Assembly (NCBI RefSeq): GCF_964355755.1
Contig: NC_092672.1
Location: 3,658,001 to 3,722,000, forward strand
DNA from: Antedon mediterranea
Lineage: Eukaryota > Echinodermata > Crinoidea > Comatulida > Antedonidae
Reading direction: 5' to 3'
Length of the DNA: 64,000 nt
Shown here: positions 1 to 8,802 of the stretch, one piece after another
How the letters are laid out: the number at the start of each line of letters is the position of its first letter
Position numbering within the stretch: the first letter of the stretch is position 1
Translations under genes and position numbers: made by a program
Notes under the pieces: model-generated
Database searches by the model: none
The model's input: only the letters and a program-made list of their open reading frames with translations
Told to the model about the DNA's origin: nothing

Positions 1-1031
1 TTGTTTAAAAAAAGGTATAATTTTGACAAATGTTTGAACTTTTTCCTCAAAAACGCACATAAATTATCCAATTCGACGTGCCCGTATGACGTAATTTGAA
101 GTCGAAATTGTTTCAAAGTTGGTAAAATTACTATAAAAGGCTTGAAAACATAAATCACGAGAGAAAAATGGTTTTCAACGCTACGTTCGCACCGCGCGCG
201 TAAAAAAAAGCGCGCGCGTGGGAATTTTTTACATGCTTAAAATGACATGAAACACGTAGAAAGTTGATTAGAAATTGATTTTTCGCATTTTGAATTTTAA
301 ATTAGCGTGCGCGCGTAACTTTGTGTAAAACACGCAATTTTTTATCCACAGAAAGTTAGCGCATGATATAAATTAAACTTTTGCTAAGTTTCAATTTAAA
401 TTGTTATATGGTTTTAAATCTATGTTAAATACGCGAAATTCATAAAATTGTGCGTAAGTCACGTTGCGCATTTCTGACGTCATTCACAATAGGAGGTGCA
501 CAACTTCACGTGAATGCCCATATGTTGACAAAGTTATGAAATGTTATGTTTACACGTTTTTTAGATACGCGAGACACAAAAATAGAGGAGAAATGCGCGT
601 GCGCGCGTAACGTCTTGTAAAACATGCCATTTTTAATCCACAAAAAGTTTTCCCTTGATGTGACTTAAATTTTCACAAAGTGTCAAAACAAATTTATGCT
701 TGGTTTTTAGTCTATGATCAATCATAAAAAATCATAAAATCGCACGTAAGTCACGTTGCGCAACTCTGACGTCATTCAAAAATAGGAGGTGCACAACTTC
801 ACGTAAATGCCCATATGTTGACAAAGTAATGAAATGTTATGTTTACAAGTTTTTGAGATACGCGAGACACAAAAATGAGGGAGAAAGAAATAAGAAAAAA
901 AAAAAAAAAAAGTAACAGGACGATTACAAGCAGTTATCCGCTACTAAGCGGATAACTAATAATACAGAAAAAAACTGTTGATCTCATACAATAACAAGGA
1001 GTTATCCGCTTGGTATACCAAGCGGATAACT
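1..1031 (-). mobile_element. Helentron-like rolling-circle element(s), 5' portion, inverted copy
   Basis: Read on the minus strand from 1031, the sequence starts with a 32-bp perfect palindrome (1000-1031, arms beginning AGTTATCCGC). A second hairpin follows at 932-957, then a T-rich tract and the same body found on the plus strand from about 1960. The body's GTGCACCTCC word and TGACGTCA occur twice (near 475-500 and 770-795), so two 5' portions are stacked. The 3' end lies left of the window. The 5' hairpin matches the GCGGATAAC word just inside the 3' ends at 3063, 4580 and 6110. That is the asymmetric inverted-repeat layout described for Helentrons. No Rep/helicase ORF is visible, so it is non-autonomous. 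Confidence 0.55.
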
Positions 1032-1751
1032 AATTATTATTTCAATTTTTATATGCTACTCACGGTTTTTAACGGTGACGTCATCTGCTATCTGGTAGAG
1101 TGAACAGTTTCCTTAACTCAATCGTCTTGGTTCACAGCTTTGCTTTATTCTTTACAGCTTCTTCTGATTGGACAATGATAATGCAGTGTACCACTCATGC
1201 GTCGATGATATTACACTTTCGGTGTTGAGTCCCACTATTTAGGCAAAGCAAAACTTAGTCTGTAGTAAGTGATGAGCTACAGCAGCTTGCCATGAAAGCT
1301 GAGGAACGAATGAGCTAAATCACGAGTTATATCCAGGTATAGATAGACAAGGCGTTGTGCTGGTTACGAGCAAAATATGACCAAAGGTTACATTTATACC
1401 TGACGTAATATTGTTTGAATATAATAGATAATCACTCACTGAATAAATAACATGTTATCTTTTAGTAGGCCAAATGCACCATTGTATGACTGAGGCCTGC
1501 ACGCAGTCAGTTATATTGATCCCCCACTTCTATCCCATCACACAATCACAACTACAGTATATTCCTGGTGTTAGACTCAATTTGTTCAGTTTTACTTATT
1601 TGGAAGGAATAACATAGCACACATATAAGTATTTTAATCGAAAAACATCCAAATTTGTATTCATTTGTCTGCAAAACGTTGTAACAAAAGTAATAATGTA
1701 GATTGTTGTACAATAAATATATATTACTCGTACAGAAAGATGCATTTAATT
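1032..1751. other. Spacer between two divergent Helentron-like 5' ends
   Basis: These 720 bp lie between mirror-image hairpins. No ORF or RNA gene was recognised. The part at 1320-1560 is related, in inverted orientation, to the interior of the element at 6472-6832. Shared words include the AACATGTTAT stretch and the CCAGGTATA-like stretch. The spacer may therefore be an older, decayed copy of that element. Confidence 0.45.
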
Positions 1752-1924
1752 AGTTATCCGCTTGGTATACCAAGCGGATAACTCCTTGTGATTGTATGAG
1801 ATCAACAGTTTTTTTCTGTATTATTAGTTATCCGCTTAGTAGCGGATAACTCCTTGTAATCGTCCTGTTACTTTTTTTTTTTGGTTATCCGCTCTTGGCG
1901 GATAACCTCTTGTTATTGTCAGGA

Positions 1925-1958
<34 letters not shown>

Positions 1959-3106
1959 CTATGTTATTCTTCTTTCTTTCCCAAAATTTTGTGTCACGTG
2001 TATCTCAAATTCTGATCAACATTACATCGTATAACTTTGTCAGAAGATTTACCGCTATGTGTAGAAGTGCAGGACAGCTCGTTTTTTTACTTTAGAGTCG
2101 CGCAGCGTAAGCTACGCGCGATTTTATGAATTTCGCGTATTTAACATAGACTAAAAAGCAAAAGTCATTTTGTAATGACACTTAGTGAACATTTAAGTCA
2201 TATCAAGGGCAAACTTTCTATGGATTAAAAATGGCATGTTTGACATAAAGTTACGCGCGCACGCGCGTTTAAAATTTCAAATTGCGAAAAATCCATTTCT
2301 AATCAACTTTCTACGCGTTTCAGGTCATTTTAAGCATTTCAAAAATTCCCACGCGTGCGCATATTTTTTACGCGCGCGTGCGCACGTAGCGCAAAAACAT
2401 CTTTTTTTTGCTTGATTTTTGTTTTTTCAGCCTTTTCTAGTAAATTTACCAATTTTCAATCAATTTTGACTTAAAATCACGTCATACGAGCACGTAGAAT
2501 TGAACAATTTGCGCGCGTTTTTGAAGAAAAAGTTCAAAAATTCGTCAAAATTATGCCTTTTTTAAAACAGTCATAGATTGTAAACTACGAGGAGAATTTT
2601 TTTTAAATTACACATTCTGGAAGATAATGAGTTGTAGATATCGAATCATGCATCGATATGGCTAACCGGACATTGTGACGTCATCGTTTGGCCACTCGAA
2701 TATGAAATATAGGATTTTTGTCTCTTTCGTCATAGCTCGTCACATTTAATAGAGCGCATCTCCACTTATCCGTATTCCATTTCCCTCAATTTTTTTATTT
2801 TGTCTAGGTCAATCAATTATCTTTCGCATGATTTACCATTTTTAAAATTGTTATGACGTCATCATGTCCAAAAGCGTCAATAACTTTAGTCACTTCTTTT
2901 CACCTATTCTGCACTGTATGTAGTACGTATACAGTATATAGTGTATACCGTATATACTCAGACGTGACGCAAAATGGAGGGCGCACTAACATTTTTTTCA
3001 ATGGCATAATCGTTTTTCTGCGCGCAATATTCCAACGTATGACGTGCACGTGGCTTTTGCGCTGCGGATAACCTAACTCGTCCGTAGTGACGAGTTCAAA
3101 TCTAGT
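1752..3106 (+). mobile_element. Helentron-like element, unit A
   Basis: Nested 5' hairpins begin at 1752, about 1828 and 1882; each is a GTTATCCGC arm, a short loop and a GCGGATAAC arm. The body follows, with GCGCGTAA-rich stretches and TGACGTCA sites. The 3' end near 3063-3105 reads GCGGATAAC, then a hairpin (AACTCGTC, loop, GACGAGTT), then CTAG. A hairpin a few bases before a terminal CTAG is the standard 3' signature of rolling-circle transposons. It holds no coding potential. Confidence 0.6.
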
Positions 3107-4620
3107 TTTTCTTATTTCTTTCTCCCCCATTTTTGTGTCTCACGTATCTCAAAAACTTGTAAACATAACATTTCATAACTTTGTCAACATATGGGCATAT
3201 ACGTGAAGTTGTGCACCTCCTATTTTTGAATGACGTCAGAGTTGCGCAACGTGACTTACGCACGATTTTATGATTTTTTATGATTGACCATAGATTAAAA
3301 ACCAAGCGTAATTTTGTTTTGACACTTTGTGAAAATTTAAGTCATATCAAGTGCAAATTTTCTATGGATTAAAAATGGCATGTTTTACAAGAAGTTACGC
3401 GGGCACGCGCATTTAAAATTTCAAAATGCGCAAAATTAATTTCTAATCAACTTTCTACGCTGATCATGACATTTTGAGCATGTCAAAAATTCCCACGCGC
3501 GCGAAAAAATTTACGCGTAAGGGGCGCACGGAGTATGAAAACCATGTTTTTTTTCTTGAATTTTGAGTGTCCAGCCTTTCGTAGTCATTTTAAACAAGAT
3601 TGACATCATTTCAAGTTAAAATGACGTCATACGTACACGTTGATTTAGACCATTTGCATGCGTTTTAGTTGCAAAAGTGACAAAATATTGTCAAAATTAT
3701 GCCTATTTTGAATCTATTATAGCTCGTCAGGATCAAAGGTGACCCCAATTTGTTTTAACTTATTATGCAAGAAGATAAATTGTAGATATAAATTCATGCA
3801 GAATTTTTACCTCTCGGAAGTTATGACGTCATCGTATGGCCACACGAATGTAAAAAATAGGATTTTTGTCTCTTTCGTTATTGCTCACCACATTCAATGG
3901 ACCGCATCACGCTTATCCGTTTTCCATTTTCACCCCGATTTTGATATTGTCTAGGTCAATCAACTATCTTTCGCATGAGTTAAAAATATTTTAATTTTTA
4001 TGACGTCATCATGCCAAAAAAATTAAATTACGTGTAGCATTAATTCCATCTTTACAGTAAATTTTAATCTGTTATAGCTCGTAAGAATAAAATGTGATAA
4101 TAACGATTAAAACGTTTTCTAGTAGCTATTAGATTGTAGATAGGAAATCATGTGAAAATTTTGCCAATCGGATGTTGTGACGTCATCATATGACCAGTTA
4201 AATAAAAAATCGTATTTTCATCTTTTGCGTCATAATTCATTACATTTCAAAAAGCGCGCATCAATATTTTACGTATTTAAATTTTTTCTACACATTAATA
4301 TGTTGTTGCCGAGATAATTTCCTTCTGAAATTGCTATCTTAGTGTTTCATTTTGATACCGTCACCATGTTAAAAATTGGAATAAATGGCGGGTCTAGTCA
4401 TTTCACCTATTCTACACTGTATGTAATATGTATACAGATTATACTGTGTATACTATATGACACAAAATAACAGAATTCAGCAATAACAACATATCATATT
4501 CTTCAGGTCAGGTCATAAATGCCATAATCTTTTTCTGTGTGCAATATTCCAACGTATAAAGTGCACGTGGCGTTTGTGGTGCGGATAACTAACTCGTCAA
4601 AGTGACGAGTTACATGTCTA
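3107..4620 (+). mobile_element. Helentron-like element, unit B (tandem)
   Basis: This unit starts right after the CTAG of unit A and ends at its own hairpin plus CTAG near 4585-4620. Its body is about 1.51 kb and aligns throughout with unit C; for example the GTGCACCTCC word lies at about 3211 and 4723. It lacks the 5' GTTATCCGC hairpin, so the unit looks 5'-truncated or joined end to end. Confidence 0.6.
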
Positions 4621-6151
4621 GTTCTTCTTTCCATCCTTCCTTTTTGTGGATCGCGTTTCTCTAAAATGTGTAAACATAACATTTCTTAACTTTGACAACA
4701 TATGGGCATTTACGTGAAGTTGTGCACCTCCTATTTTTGAATGACGTCATAGTTACGCAACGTGACTTACGCGCAATTTTATGAATTTCAATGATTGATC
4801 ATAGATTAAAAACCAAAAGTCATTTAGTATTGACACTTTGACAAAATTTAAGTCATATCAGGGGCAAACTTTCTACGGATTAAAAATGGCATGTTTCACA
4901 AGAAGTTACGCGCGCACGCGCATTTAAAATTTCAAAATGCGCAAAATTAATTTCTAATCAACTTTTTATGCGTTTCTTGTCATTTTGAGCATGTCAAAAA
5001 TTCCCACGGGCGCGCAATTTTTTACGCACGCGGTGCGCACGTAGCGTTAAAAACATATTTTTTTCTCTTGAATTATATTTTTCAAGCCTTTCCTAGTAAT
5101 TTTGAAAACAATTTAGACCTTTTCCAATTTAAATAACGCCATACGAACACGTTGAATTAAACATTTCATGCGCGTTTTTTATGAAAAAGCTTAAAAAATC
5201 ATCAAAATTTTGTCTTTTTTTAAACAGTCATAGTTTCTAAAGTAAACCGTGAACCGTTTATTTTTATTACAAAATCTAGAAGTTGATGAGTTGTAGATAA
5301 CGGATCATGCATCGATAAGGCTAAAAAAACATTGTGACGTCATCGTATGGCCACACGAATGTAAAATATAGGATTTTTGTCTCTTTCGTTATTGCTCATC
5401 ACATTCATTGGAGCGCATCACGCTTATCTGTATTCCTTTTTCTCCTACATTTATATATTGTGTAGGTCAATCAACTTTCTTTAGCATGAGATAAAAATAT
5501 TTTAATTTTTATGACGTCATCATGCCTAAAAATTTCAATTACGTGGGTCATTAATTTCATCTTTACAGTAAATTTTATTCTGTAATAGCTCGTAAGAATA
5601 AAATGTGATAATCACGATTAAAACGTTTTCTGGAAGCTATTGGATTGTAGATACGAATTCATGTAAACATTTTGCCAATCGGATGTTGTGACGTCATCAT
5701 ATGGCCAGTTGAATAAAAAAAGTCGTATTTTCATATTTTGCGTAATAGTTCATCACATTTAAAAGGGTGCGCATCTATATTTTACGTATTCAAATTTCTT
5801 CTACACGTTAATATGTTGTTCCCAAGATAATTTCCTTCTGAAATTGCTATCTAAGTGTTTCATTTTGATACCGTCGCCATGTTAAAAATTGGAATAAATG
5901 GCGGGTCCCGTAATTTCACCTATTCTACACTGTATGTAATATGTATACAGATTATACTGTAGTGTTTGCATGTATATACTATATGACACAAAATTGACAG
6001 AATTCAGCACTAACAGCATATCATATTCTTCAGTTCTTGTCATAATGCCATAATCTTTATCTGTGTGCAATATTCCAACGTATGACGTGCACGTGGCGTT
6101 TATCGTGGTGCGGATAACTAACTCGTCAAACTGACGAGTTTCATGTCTAGT
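4621..6151 (+). mobile_element. Helentron-like element, unit C (tandem)
   Basis: This is the second full-length repeat of the 1.5-kb unit, again ending in GCGGATAAC, the ACTCGTC/GACGAGT hairpin and CTAG at about 6110-6150. It carries TGACGTCA at about 4742, 5336, 5511 and 5690. No ORF of note. Confidence 0.6.
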
Positions 6152-6177
6152 TTACTCTACTTCGGGAAAAGAAGACT

Positions 6178-6470
6178 TTTAATTAAAGATGTATTGTCCC
6201 CCTGAAAAATAATTTGTTACAATTTTTTTTGTTGAATATGCCATTTTAATGTCACATAATAGTTATTTACCTGAAAAATTTGGAATTTAAAGCAAAAAAT
6301 TGTCAAATTGGATTTTTGGTTGAATTTAACCATTTATCATGTTATTTAACATGTTGTTGTTTTTTTTTACGGAAGTGATTCACTTTATTAAACTACAAAA
6401 TTACCTATTCAAAGTCTGATTTAATTAATCTTCATTTTTCATGTTTAACCAAAAAAACATGTATCAGGCG
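6178..6470 (+). mobile_element. Dispersed repeat, TTAAAGATGTATTGTCCCCC family, copy 1
   Basis: The copy begins with the family's end motif and continues through the family interior (GTTGAATATGCCAT, AATTTAAAGCAAAAAA, GAAGTGATTCACTT). It stops where another element starts at 6472. Related copies lie at about 47021-47290, 61100-61432 and 62505-62760. The copy at 61100 carries the end motif at both ends, in inverted orientation. Confidence 0.65.
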
Positions 6471-6471
6471 T

Positions 6472-6832
6472 AACAAATTGAGTGCGATAGTAGAAGTCAA
6501 TTATGATCCTAGATGTGTGATTTGTGTGGTGGGACAGAAGTGGGGGATCAATAGAACTGACTACGTGCAGCTTACAGACAAATTGATGCATTTGACCTAC
6601 TAAAAGATAACATGTTATTTATTCAGTGATTATCTATTTTATTCAAACAATATCACGTCAGGTATGAATGTCATACTTTGCTTGTGACCAGCACAGCGCC
6701 CTCTGTGTATCGGATATACCTGGATATACCTCGTGATTGAGCTCATATTCGACCGCCGAGTTTTGAATCACCACACAAATCACACATCTAGGATCATAAT
6801 TGACTTCTACTATCGCACTCAATTTGTTACGG
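6472..6832. mobile_element. Foldback element with about 60-bp terminal inverted repeats
   Basis: The left end (TAACAAATTGAGTGCGATAG, continuing to about 6530) is repeated in reverse complement at about 6772-6832, almost without mismatch. It is 361 bp long with no ORF, so it is a MITE-type non-autonomous DNA transposon. It abuts or interrupts the repeat at 6178-6470. Confidence 0.75.
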
Positions 6833-8060
6833 TTACGTTTTTATTTTGACATTATCCAACTTTTGTATTCGTTTTTTCAGCAAACATTGTAACAAAAGTA
6901 GTTTGTTACAAAGATTAAAATTAATCGTACAAAACGATGCAATTAATTTTCTTAGGCCTACTTCATAAGAAAAGAAAGCAAAAAATAAAAACATGTTAAA
7001 AATTTTTTAGTGTATTTAAAAAAAATGTTTGACCGATTTTTATGGCTGTTTTTGCAACGCTCTACTTAATTAATAACCTACAACCTCATGTTATTTTTAA
7101 TTTGTAATTTCTTAAAACGTCGTCGGAAGGATTTTTTATACCATTAAAAATACCATTTAAAATCGTCCATATGGTTTAAGTATAGGCCTGTTTATAAACT
7201 CTTTAGATAGGGTTACAAAATCGTCTCTAACTTCTAATATTATTGTCCGATTACGATGGCTGTTTCACTATGCAATAACTGACCAATCAAGCTTTCTAAT
7301 AACCTAAAGTAATTTGATTGGTTCAGAGTGCTCGTCTGAACACCTCTTTCAATGAGACAGAGTGACTTGCCTTGACCGAAAAAGGATAGAAGAAAATTTC
7401 AAAAGTCATCGAACCATTCGCGAGTTCGTCTAGACTCTAAACTAAAATTGTATTTACTCTCCAGAACGACCAGTCCAAAACATTTTATTTTTGTACGAGA
7501 GATAAGAGTTGATTACTTTATATTTGTAATTTGTAAATATATTTTAGAATAAGGTTTGTGTTTTTATATATGAGTAGTTAAAAAACACTCGTGAGTTTTG
7601 CGGTATTTATTGATTCTTCCATTATAAAAGTAGGGAGGCAATGCTGGGCTAGTATACCTGATGTAAAACGTTGACTAATACCATAAATAAAGGTTTTTTT
7701 AAAAGTACTGTAATATTATTTATTCATATTTTTATGTATTATCCAAAGACAATTTACTATGCTACGAGTAACAGTGGCTGGATCTCAATTGAGATATAAC
7801 ACTGTGAAATACAAAACAATTGGCACAATTGACGCCGAACAATAGATTTAAGCCTCAACAAGCCTGGCACACCATAGAGATATTATATCTCTATGGGCAC
7901 ACCCAATCCAACACATTTACTAACACCCCTATAAAAAATAATGGAATAGTCCTATATTCAATACATGCCGAAAACTCCAGTTAATCCATCAATTCATCTT
8001 GTACGTCTCTCTACTTTGATTTATTAGGGTTTAGCCAAAATGCAATAGGTAATAAATATC
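6833..8060. other. Gene-free AT-rich stretch
   Basis: I see no exon, RNA gene or strong repeat here. A short hairpin (AGAGATATTATATCTCT, about 7876-7892) is the only clear structure. Confidence 0.4.
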
Positions 8061-8460
8061 ACGTACGTACGTAATAATCAACACGTACGTACGTATTATT
8101 ATTATATTAACACGTACGTACGTATTAAATAAATATTACGTACGTAATTACGTACGTACGTGTTGATTATTACGTACGTACGTGTTGATTATTACGTACG
8201 TACGTAATAATAATAATAATACGTACGTACGTGTTATTTAATACGTACGTACGTGTTAATATTACGTACGTAATAATAATAATGCGTACGTACCTATTAT
8301 TATTACGTAAGTACGTACTATATTAACACGACGTACGTATTAAATAAATATTGCGTACGTACGTGTTATTTATTACGTACGTACGTGTTGATTATTACGT
8401 ACGTACGTAATATTAACATGTACGTACGTATTAAATAACATGTACGTACGTGATATTAAT
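8061..8460. repeat. Self-complementary (ACGT)n array with AT spacers
   Basis: About 18-20 blocks of ACGTACGTACGT or shorter variants are separated by 3-12 bp AT spacers such as GTGTTGATTATT and AATAATAAT. Each block is its own reverse complement, and blocks plus spacers also form longer palindromes. It is not a simple microsatellite because the spacers are regular and repeat between blocks. Confidence 0.9.
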
Positions 8461-8802
8461 TTTTTCGTGCCGCGGCTCTCGCCAGCTATGTCTCAGGAGG
8501 ACACATTCATTAATAAGCTGTTTCATAGCGGTAGCATTTTTTTTATTTATTCAGGTATAAAACACATATATACAAAACAGCAGCCATTGGCTGATGATAA
8601 CGTTTGATTACAATCAATAAACAAATTTAAAGTAAAAGAGGCACAATTTTGCGAATTTGGAAACTCGACTATAATTTATAGGTAGCTGCTGGACCCAAAA
8701 AACGTCTGGGAGAAGAGAGTCTATGAAAGCCTTTGCTGATAATACAGTATTATTGAGATGCAGGTAGACAGAAATCTGTAAAATCTTGTTCGATAAATAA
8801 TA

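What the first reader, a model, noticed from the sequence alone, without database searches (positions are those of the whole stretch)
1752..6151. Head-to-tail array of Helentron-like elements with hairpins at both ends
Three units each end in GCGGATAAC, an ACTCGTC/GACGAGT hairpin and CTAG. The 5' side carries hairpins built on the complementary GTTATCCGC. This asymmetric inverted-repeat plan is what is known for Helentrons (Helitron2). Two units are about 1.5 kb and abut exactly after CTAG, as expected for tandem rolling-circle products. No Rep/helicase is present, so the autonomous partner is elsewhere.
Basis: partly seen in the sequence, partly recalled or inferred. Interest (0 to 1): 0.65.

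Follow-up and report, generated by a model that had tools for sequence, protein, structure and literature searches.

The report
Helentron arrays grown by nested self-insertion
A family of rolling-circle jumping genes (Helentrons) repeatedly lands in a short T-rich strip just inside its own left end, so copies pile up inside one another like nested brackets and look like tandem arrays, some nearly 100 kb long.

Summary
At 1750-6150 there are three units, each ending GCGGATAAC + ACTCGTC/GACGAGT hairpin + CTAG, and three GTTATCCGC hairpins at the 5' side (0 expected by chance). The Helentron/Helitron2 reading is supported: genome-wide there are about 2,900 such 3' ends, about 2,600 5' hairpin caps, and dozens of ~3,100-aa RepHel-endonuclease-OTU ORFs with the same ends. 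Both window arrays have clean A^T empty sites without target duplication at paralogous loci.

The tandem rolling-circle reading is not supported. Only the first unit carries 5' ends, three stacked; units 2 and 3 are headless. The array is nested: each new copy landed in the T-rich strip 20-54 nt behind the 5' hairpin of an older copy, giving caps C-B-A then bodies A-B-C. The bracket pattern predicted unfetched DNA correctly. Nested pairing restores an intact strip exactly in 12/19 split elements versus 1/72 mispairings. Split halves lie up to 93 kb apart with linked alleles. One 13-unit array is a perfectly balanced bracket string. Segmental duplication adds some units. Helitron self-insertion is known in fungi; growth at this scale appears undescribed in the papers searched.

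The parts
1750..6150 (+). Right-hand nested array of three non-autonomous Helentrons (HINEs): C( B( A ) )
   Evidence: empty site at paralogous loci
1750..1789 (+). 5' cap (hairpin GTTATCCGC..GCGGATAAC) of outermost element C
1790..1823 (+). left half of the T-rich landing strip of element C (ends CTGTATTA); its right half is at 4622
   Evidence: 36 uninterrupted copies of this strip elsewhere in the genome; pairing
1824..1857 (+). 5' cap of middle element B
1858..1880 (+). left half of the landing strip of element B; its right half is at 3106
1881..1913 (+). 5' cap of innermost element A
1914..3105 (+). uninterrupted strip and body of element A, ending in GCGGATAAC-hairpin-CTAG
   Evidence: 99.3% identical to a separate copy at C1:1013-1014 kb
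3106..4621 (+). headless body of element B with its 3' end
   Evidence: 99.5% identical to the B body of the 95-kb array on C1
4622..6150 (+). headless body of element C with its 3' end
   Evidence: 98.1% identical to the C body of the left array
1..1033 (-). start of a second, divergent nested array C( B() F() ) that continues out of the window to C3:3653979
   Evidence: empty site
1034..1749 (.). 716 bp of host repeat DNA between the two arrays; two paralogous loci on C3 lack both arrays

Best explanation
The units are non-autonomous Helentrons (HINEs) of a large family mobilised by RepHel-endonuclease Helentrons in the same genome. Shown by sequence: elements read 5'-TT[A/G]GTTATCCGC(hairpin)...GCGGATAAC-hairpin-CTAG-3' and enter between A (or T) and T without target duplication. 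Shown by sequence: the array arose by successive insertion of new copies into a T-rich strip 20-54 nt behind the 5' hairpin of an older copy. Each event parks the old 5' cap in front and leaves the old body headless behind, so the array reads like nested brackets and grows from inside. Inferred: the movement uses a rolling-circle, single-strand intermediate made by RepHel. Inferred: each new copy brings a fresh landing strip, so arrays grow by positive feedback. Inferred: segmental duplication then adds or removes units in some arrays.
For: (1) Bracket parse: window right (()), window left (), C9 ((())), C2 (); the last bodies of the window-left and C9 arrays were predicted before the DNA was fetched. 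(2) Cap order mirrors body order: C-B-A then A-B-C in the window; C-B-A-D then D-A-B-C on C9. (3) Joining nested halves restores a known intact strip exactly in 12/19 cases against 1/72 mispairings, Fisher p 2e-9. (4) 36 intact C strips exist; of 46 left half-junctions, 35 have a right half-junction downstream on the same strand within 100 kb (random 0.3), and linked variants pair correctly in 30/35, p 2e-5; the widest pair is 92.9 kb apart. (5) All 35 headless bodies start with T and begin in the landing strip. (6) C1:919.6-939.9 kb: 13 caps, 13 ends, depth never negative and ending at 0. (7) Two C elements 98.1% identical hold inner elements that are not each other's close relatives (each matches other loci at over 99%), so the nests formed independently. 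(8) Exact empty sites for both window arrays. (9) Autonomous partner: RepHel + PIF1 helicase + endonuclease + OTU ORF of about 3,091 aa behind two A-type caps, and a related locus with eight caps and the A-type 3' end.
Against: Some arrays have one close too many: C1:1010-1015 kb ), C4:25.34-25.35 Mb with one capless C body, and the 95-kb array at 28 versus 29. These need cap loss, duplication or caps missed by the exact patterns. A duplicated stretch in C3:20.317-20.322 Mb, 100% identical over 1,446 bp, shows that segmental duplication also occurs. In 7 of 19 nested joins the strip is off by 1-2 bases, as drifting T-runs would give. Bracket order alone is weak for the two long arrays (7% of shuffles). 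No transposition was observed.
Confidence: 0.93

Rival explanations
1. Tandem rolling-circle products: one long concatemer of units was made by continued rolling-circle replication and inserted at once.
For: Units abut exactly after CTAG and the elements are rolling-circle transposons; tandem Helitrons have been explained this way (cited in PMC5148889).
Against: Internal units lack 5' ends, units in one array belong to different subfamilies, caps are stacked at the front in mirror order to the bodies, and split halves are linked by allele across the inserted copies.
Confidence: 0.03
2. Unequal crossing-over or segmental duplication made the arrays from a single inserted element, as for satellite DNA.
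For: A duplicated stretch 100% identical over 1,446 bp within C3:20.317-20.322 Mb and two 100% identical neighbouring bodies in the C1:919 kb array; extra closes in some arrays.
Against: Neighbouring units are usually different subfamilies; split positions differ; nested joins restore intact strips. It explains extra units, not the main structure.
Confidence: 0.04
3. Composite elements: a nest C(B) once formed moves as a whole or as a multi-cap element with one 3' end, as proposed for Fusarium Helitrons.
For: The same C/B junction TATTA|TT occurs at 46 dispersed loci; eight stacked A caps stand in front of one autonomous element; 11 of 46 left junctions have no matching right junction.
Against: Near-identical C elements contain different B subtypes, and 98.9% identical B copies lie in C elements only about 95% identical, so most nests formed in place. 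Not excluded for some multi-cap copies.
Confidence: 0.15

Closest known systems
Helentrons and their non-autonomous HINEs / DINE-1 (Thomas et al. 2014, PMC4067079)
   Same: Palindromic sub-terminal inverted repeats, 3' hairpin, T-rich/TT targets without TSD, RepHel with a C-terminal endonuclease domain, OTU domain
   Different: Here RepHel is antisense to the cap-to-CTAG axis, and HINEs build nested arrays of tens of units through a landing strip behind their own 5' end
Helitron2 (Bao and Jurka 2013, PMC3627910)
   Same: Asymmetric terminal inverted repeats, hairpins at both ends, 3' inverted repeat just upstream of the 3' hairpin; opposite RepHel orientation noted there for Helitron-1_DR and Helitron-2_CRe
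   Different: Helitron2 as described has no endonuclease domain (per PMC4067079); no nested arrays were reported in the passages read
FoHeli elements of Fusarium oxysporum and Metarhizium (2016, PMC5148889)
   Same: Self-insertion near the 5' end, multiple 5' termini with one 3' terminus, one three-copy case in which two insertions into a 5' end were one of two readings offered
   Different: Isolated cases there; here thousands of ends, one landing strip, and the nesting is tested by pairing halves
Cg_HINE elements of the Pacific oyster (PMC7492417)
   Same: HINEs linked to array-like repeats, insertion into T-rich/TT sites, no TSD
   Different: There the tandem repeats are short satellite units carried inside each element; here whole elements are nested

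Membership tests
Helentron / HINE | Palindromic inverted repeat near the 5' end, its partner sub-terminal at the 3' end, followed by a 3' hairpin | tested here: met
   GTTATCCGC hairpin 2-3 nt from the 5' end; GCGGATAAC about 33 nt before the 3' end, then ACTCGTC hairpin and CTAG
Helentron / HINE | Insertion into T-rich/TT-type sites without target duplication | tested here: met
   Empty paralogous sites AATAATAA^TATTACC and GATGCATTTAA^TTTACTC; internal splits W^T. A^T with a 5'-TT end and T^T with a shared T cannot be told apart.
Helentron / HINE | Autonomous partner with Rep, helicase and C-terminal endonuclease sharing the ends | tested here: met
   3,091-aa ORF: PF14214 3.8e-37, PIF1 4.8e-29, Exo_endo_phos 3.6e-9, OTU 4e-8; A-type caps in front; same caps and 3' end at the related 14.50-14.52 Mb locus. 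No single autonomous copy was read from end to end.
Helitron2 | Hairpins at both ends with asymmetric inverted repeats | tested here: met
Helitron2 | RepHel without endonuclease domain (as stated in PMC4067079) | tested here: not met
   Endonuclease domain present; hence filed as Helentron
Canonical Helitron (Helitron1) | 5'-TC, no 5' hairpin, 3'-CTRR, A^T insertion | tested here: not met
   5'-TT[A/G]GTTATCC with a hairpin; the 3' CTAG does fit CTRR and A^T insertion is seen
Helentron / HINE | RepHel phylogeny placing the protein in the Helentron clade | not tested
   No tree was built; assignment rests on domain order
Helentron / HINE | Movement by rolling-circle / peel-and-paste replication | not testable with these tools
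   Needs an activity assay

The most novel reading that the evidence does not exclude
The landing strip is an actively used self-target: RepHel bound to the 5' hairpin of a resident copy, or the hairpin itself when extruded, directs incoming copies to the strip beside it, a self-addressing system that builds safe-harbour arrays. Evidence beyond base composition: all 35 self-insertions fall in a ~35-nt zone although about half of the T6 runs in the bodies lie elsewhere. But a long TTCTTCTTTC pyrimidine motif occurs only in the zone, so plain sequence preference is not excluded.
Probability: 0.35. Interest if true: 0.75.

Novelty: new variant of a known kind. Interest (0 to 1): 0.52.

Why it matters
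The arrays keep a readable record of insertion order, so each is a relative clock for Helentron bursts. They show how a dispersed transposon can make long satellite-like arrays without unequal crossing-over or rolling-circle concatemers, a question open for HINE-derived satellites. The 36 empty and dozens of filled strips give a natural experiment on Helentron target choice. Repeat-annotation software that treats such arrays as tandem repeats would misread them.

Tried and rejected
Tandem rolling-circle concatemer: rejected because internal units lack caps and cap order mirrors body order. Composite C(B) moving as one: rejected for the cases read, because near-identical outer copies hold different inner subtypes. 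The first automatic mapping of headless starts gave apparent offsets of 324-327, 542 and -845. Four come from a 293-bp duplication inside the reference body, one from an internal deletion and one from a fused 2.4-kb unit; all six units start with strip sequence. A first reconstitution test used C reference strings partly copied from the window; it was rerun with only independently observed strings. Bracket-order shuffles for the two longest arrays were weak (7%), so count balance and half-pairing are used instead. Joined flanks of the C9 array found no empty paralogue. Species not identified; the assembly is unnamed.

Full report
WHAT IS THERE. The window is C3:3658001-3722000 of a 354-Mb, 18-contig eukaryotic assembly. 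At 1750-6150 three units end in GCGGATAAC, an ACTCGTC/GACGAGT hairpin and CTAG. In front of the first unit stand three hairpins built on GTTATCCGC. Neither motif is expected by chance, and the hairpins fold strongly as single strands. It missed that units 2 and 3 have no 5' hairpin, that unit 1 is another subfamily, and that a second array runs leftwards from 1033.

FAMILY. An exact pattern for the 3' end occurs 2,905 times in the genome, 0 in the reversed control. Two exact patterns for the 5' hairpin occur 1,940 and 654 times, so ends and caps are near parity. Pfam PF14214 finds 87 Rep matches, dozens in open frames of about 3,000-3,100 aa. One such locus, C1:22660301-22673400, starts with two A-type caps and carries a 3,091-aa frame on the other strand. 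It has Rep (3.8e-37), PIF1 helicase (4.8e-29), a C-terminal endonuclease/exonuclease/phosphatase domain (3.6e-9) and OTU (4e-8). The window's unit 1 aligns with the first 1.2 kb behind those caps at 87%. At a related locus, eight caps (C1:14500150-14500590), a Rep frame (14509036) and an A-type 3' end (14519 kb) are in line. At ten RepHel loci on C1, listed cap and Rep coordinates put the cap on the C-terminal side of the frame and on the opposite strand (my reading). Opposite RepHel orientation is described for some Helitron2 elements (PMC3627910) and FoHelis (PMC5148889). These ends match the published Helentron/Helitron2 plan; the endonuclease domain places the family with Helentrons.

EMPTY SITES. 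Joined flanks of the left array match C3:3071695-3071879 at 96% straight across the junction, and those of the right array match C3:1665978-1666114 at 91%. Both paralogous loci lack both arrays. Aligned, the insertions are AATAATAA^TATTACC and GATGCATTTAA^TTTACTC with nothing lost or duplicated, if the element is TTAGTTATCC...CTAG. Insertion between T and T with one T shared is equally compatible.

THE ARRAYS ARE NESTED, NOT TANDEM. Writing each 5' cap as (and each 3' end as ), the right array is (()). After the left array was fetched it read (), and C9:7570187-7576486 read ((())), each with host DNA after the last end. The missing ends had been predicted. Cap subfamilies mirror body subfamilies: C-B-A/A-B-C in the window, C-B-A-D/D-A-B-C on C9. 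The outermost E-type cap at C4:25351430 was predicted to end in an E-type body; one starts there at C4:25338187, though that array also holds a C body without a cap.

SPLIT HALVES REJOIN. The strip of subfamily C is found uninterrupted in 36 copies (GATCAACA[T/G]TTTTTTTCTGTATTATTCTTCTTTC), exactly what joining the window's two halves gives. It is split at TATTA^TT in 46 left half-junctions and 52 right half-junctions. Of the left ones, 35 have a right partner downstream on the same strand within 100 kb, against 0.3 for random placement. Two diagnostic variants, one on each half, agree in 30 of 35 pairs (Fisher p 2e-5). The longest pair spans 92.9 kb on C1. That array starts with caps C, B and others and ends with bodies B and C followed by host DNA, so it grew inside one element. 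For six arrays, nested pairing restores a known intact strip exactly in 12 of 19 split elements; other pairings within the same arrays do so in 1 of 72 (p 2e-9). The C1:919.6-939.9 kb array has 13 caps and 13 ends, never dips below zero and closes at zero; the 95-kb array has 28 and 29 by exact patterns.

LANDING STRIP. All 35 headless bodies start with T. Twenty-nine map 20-54 nt behind a cap directly, and the other six do so once an internal duplication, a deletion or a fused unit is allowed for. T-runs of six or more are as common in the rest of the bodies as in the zone (225 versus 254), yet none was used; a longer TTCTTCTTTC stretch is confined to the zone. So either a pyrimidine-strip preference or something local to the 5' hairpin picks the site; this is unresolved.

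INDEPENDENT EVENTS. The C bodies of the two window arrays are 98.1% identical, but their next-inner elements differ (each is over 99% identical to copies at other loci, not to each other). B copies 98.9% identical lie in C copies only about 95% identical. Nests therefore formed in place rather than travelling as composites, at least here. Some multi-cap copies may still be composites of the Fusarium type. Duplication adds units in C3:20.317-20.322 Mb and perhaps C1:919 kb.

MECHANISM. Shown: precise ends, clean insertion, nested growth, shared ends with RepHel elements. Inferred: RepHel makes a single-strand copy from cap to CTAG and inserts it at W^T; every copy brings a new strip, so a locus once hit becomes a better target. 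Whether RepHel or the extruded hairpin tethers the incoming copy is open.

NOVELTY. Self-insertion and multiple 5' termini are published for FoHelis as isolated cases, with a three-copy Metarhizium case left undecided between double 5' insertion and rolling-circle replication. HINE-linked satellite repeats are published for oyster. I found no paper in the searched library describing bracket-like Helentron arrays of tens of units or a dedicated landing strip; subscription papers are not covered. I rate it a new variant of a known kind.

Noticed in passing
window 1034-1749 and 6151-6970: Both flanks of the right array belong to a repeat with internal inverted copies (arms 6469-6549/6751-6831, 90%; 1390-1446/6615-6671, 89%); two paralogous copies of the locus lie on the same contig at 1.665 and 3.071 Mb.
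   Followed up: partly
window 8046-8465: About 400 bp of palindromic ACGTACGTACGT-type units with a ~22-bp period and many inverted arms.
   Followed up: no
G000:C1:14500150-14500590: Eight nearly identical A-type 5' caps stacked directly in front of an autonomous Helentron; some may come from slippage or multi-cap transposition rather than eight insertions.
   Followed up: partly
G000:C1:14.50-14.56 Mb: Three ~3,100-aa RepHel Helentrons lie head to tail about 21-24 kb apart; at one junction CTAG runs directly into the next cap.
   Followed up: partly
G000:C1:3166479-3169670: A small nest in the opposite orientation inside the 95-kb array, a rare insertion against the main direction.
   Followed up: no
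L051-L055: A second Helitron lineage, several copies with ORFs of up to ~1,450 aa and the highest PF14214 scores, without these caps within 1.5 kb of the Rep domain.
   Followed up: no
L075:3-3398 (minus): The Helentron ORF N-terminus matches the Herpes_teg_N cysteine-protease-like family (9e-9) in addition to OTU.
   Followed up: no
winL_b1, L083, C9_b3 bodies (C3:3657.1-3658.9 kb; L083; C9:7573.1-7574.9 kb): The B-type body carries an internal 293-bp direct duplication in the 1.8-kb versions, absent from the 1.5-kb versions.
   Followed up: no
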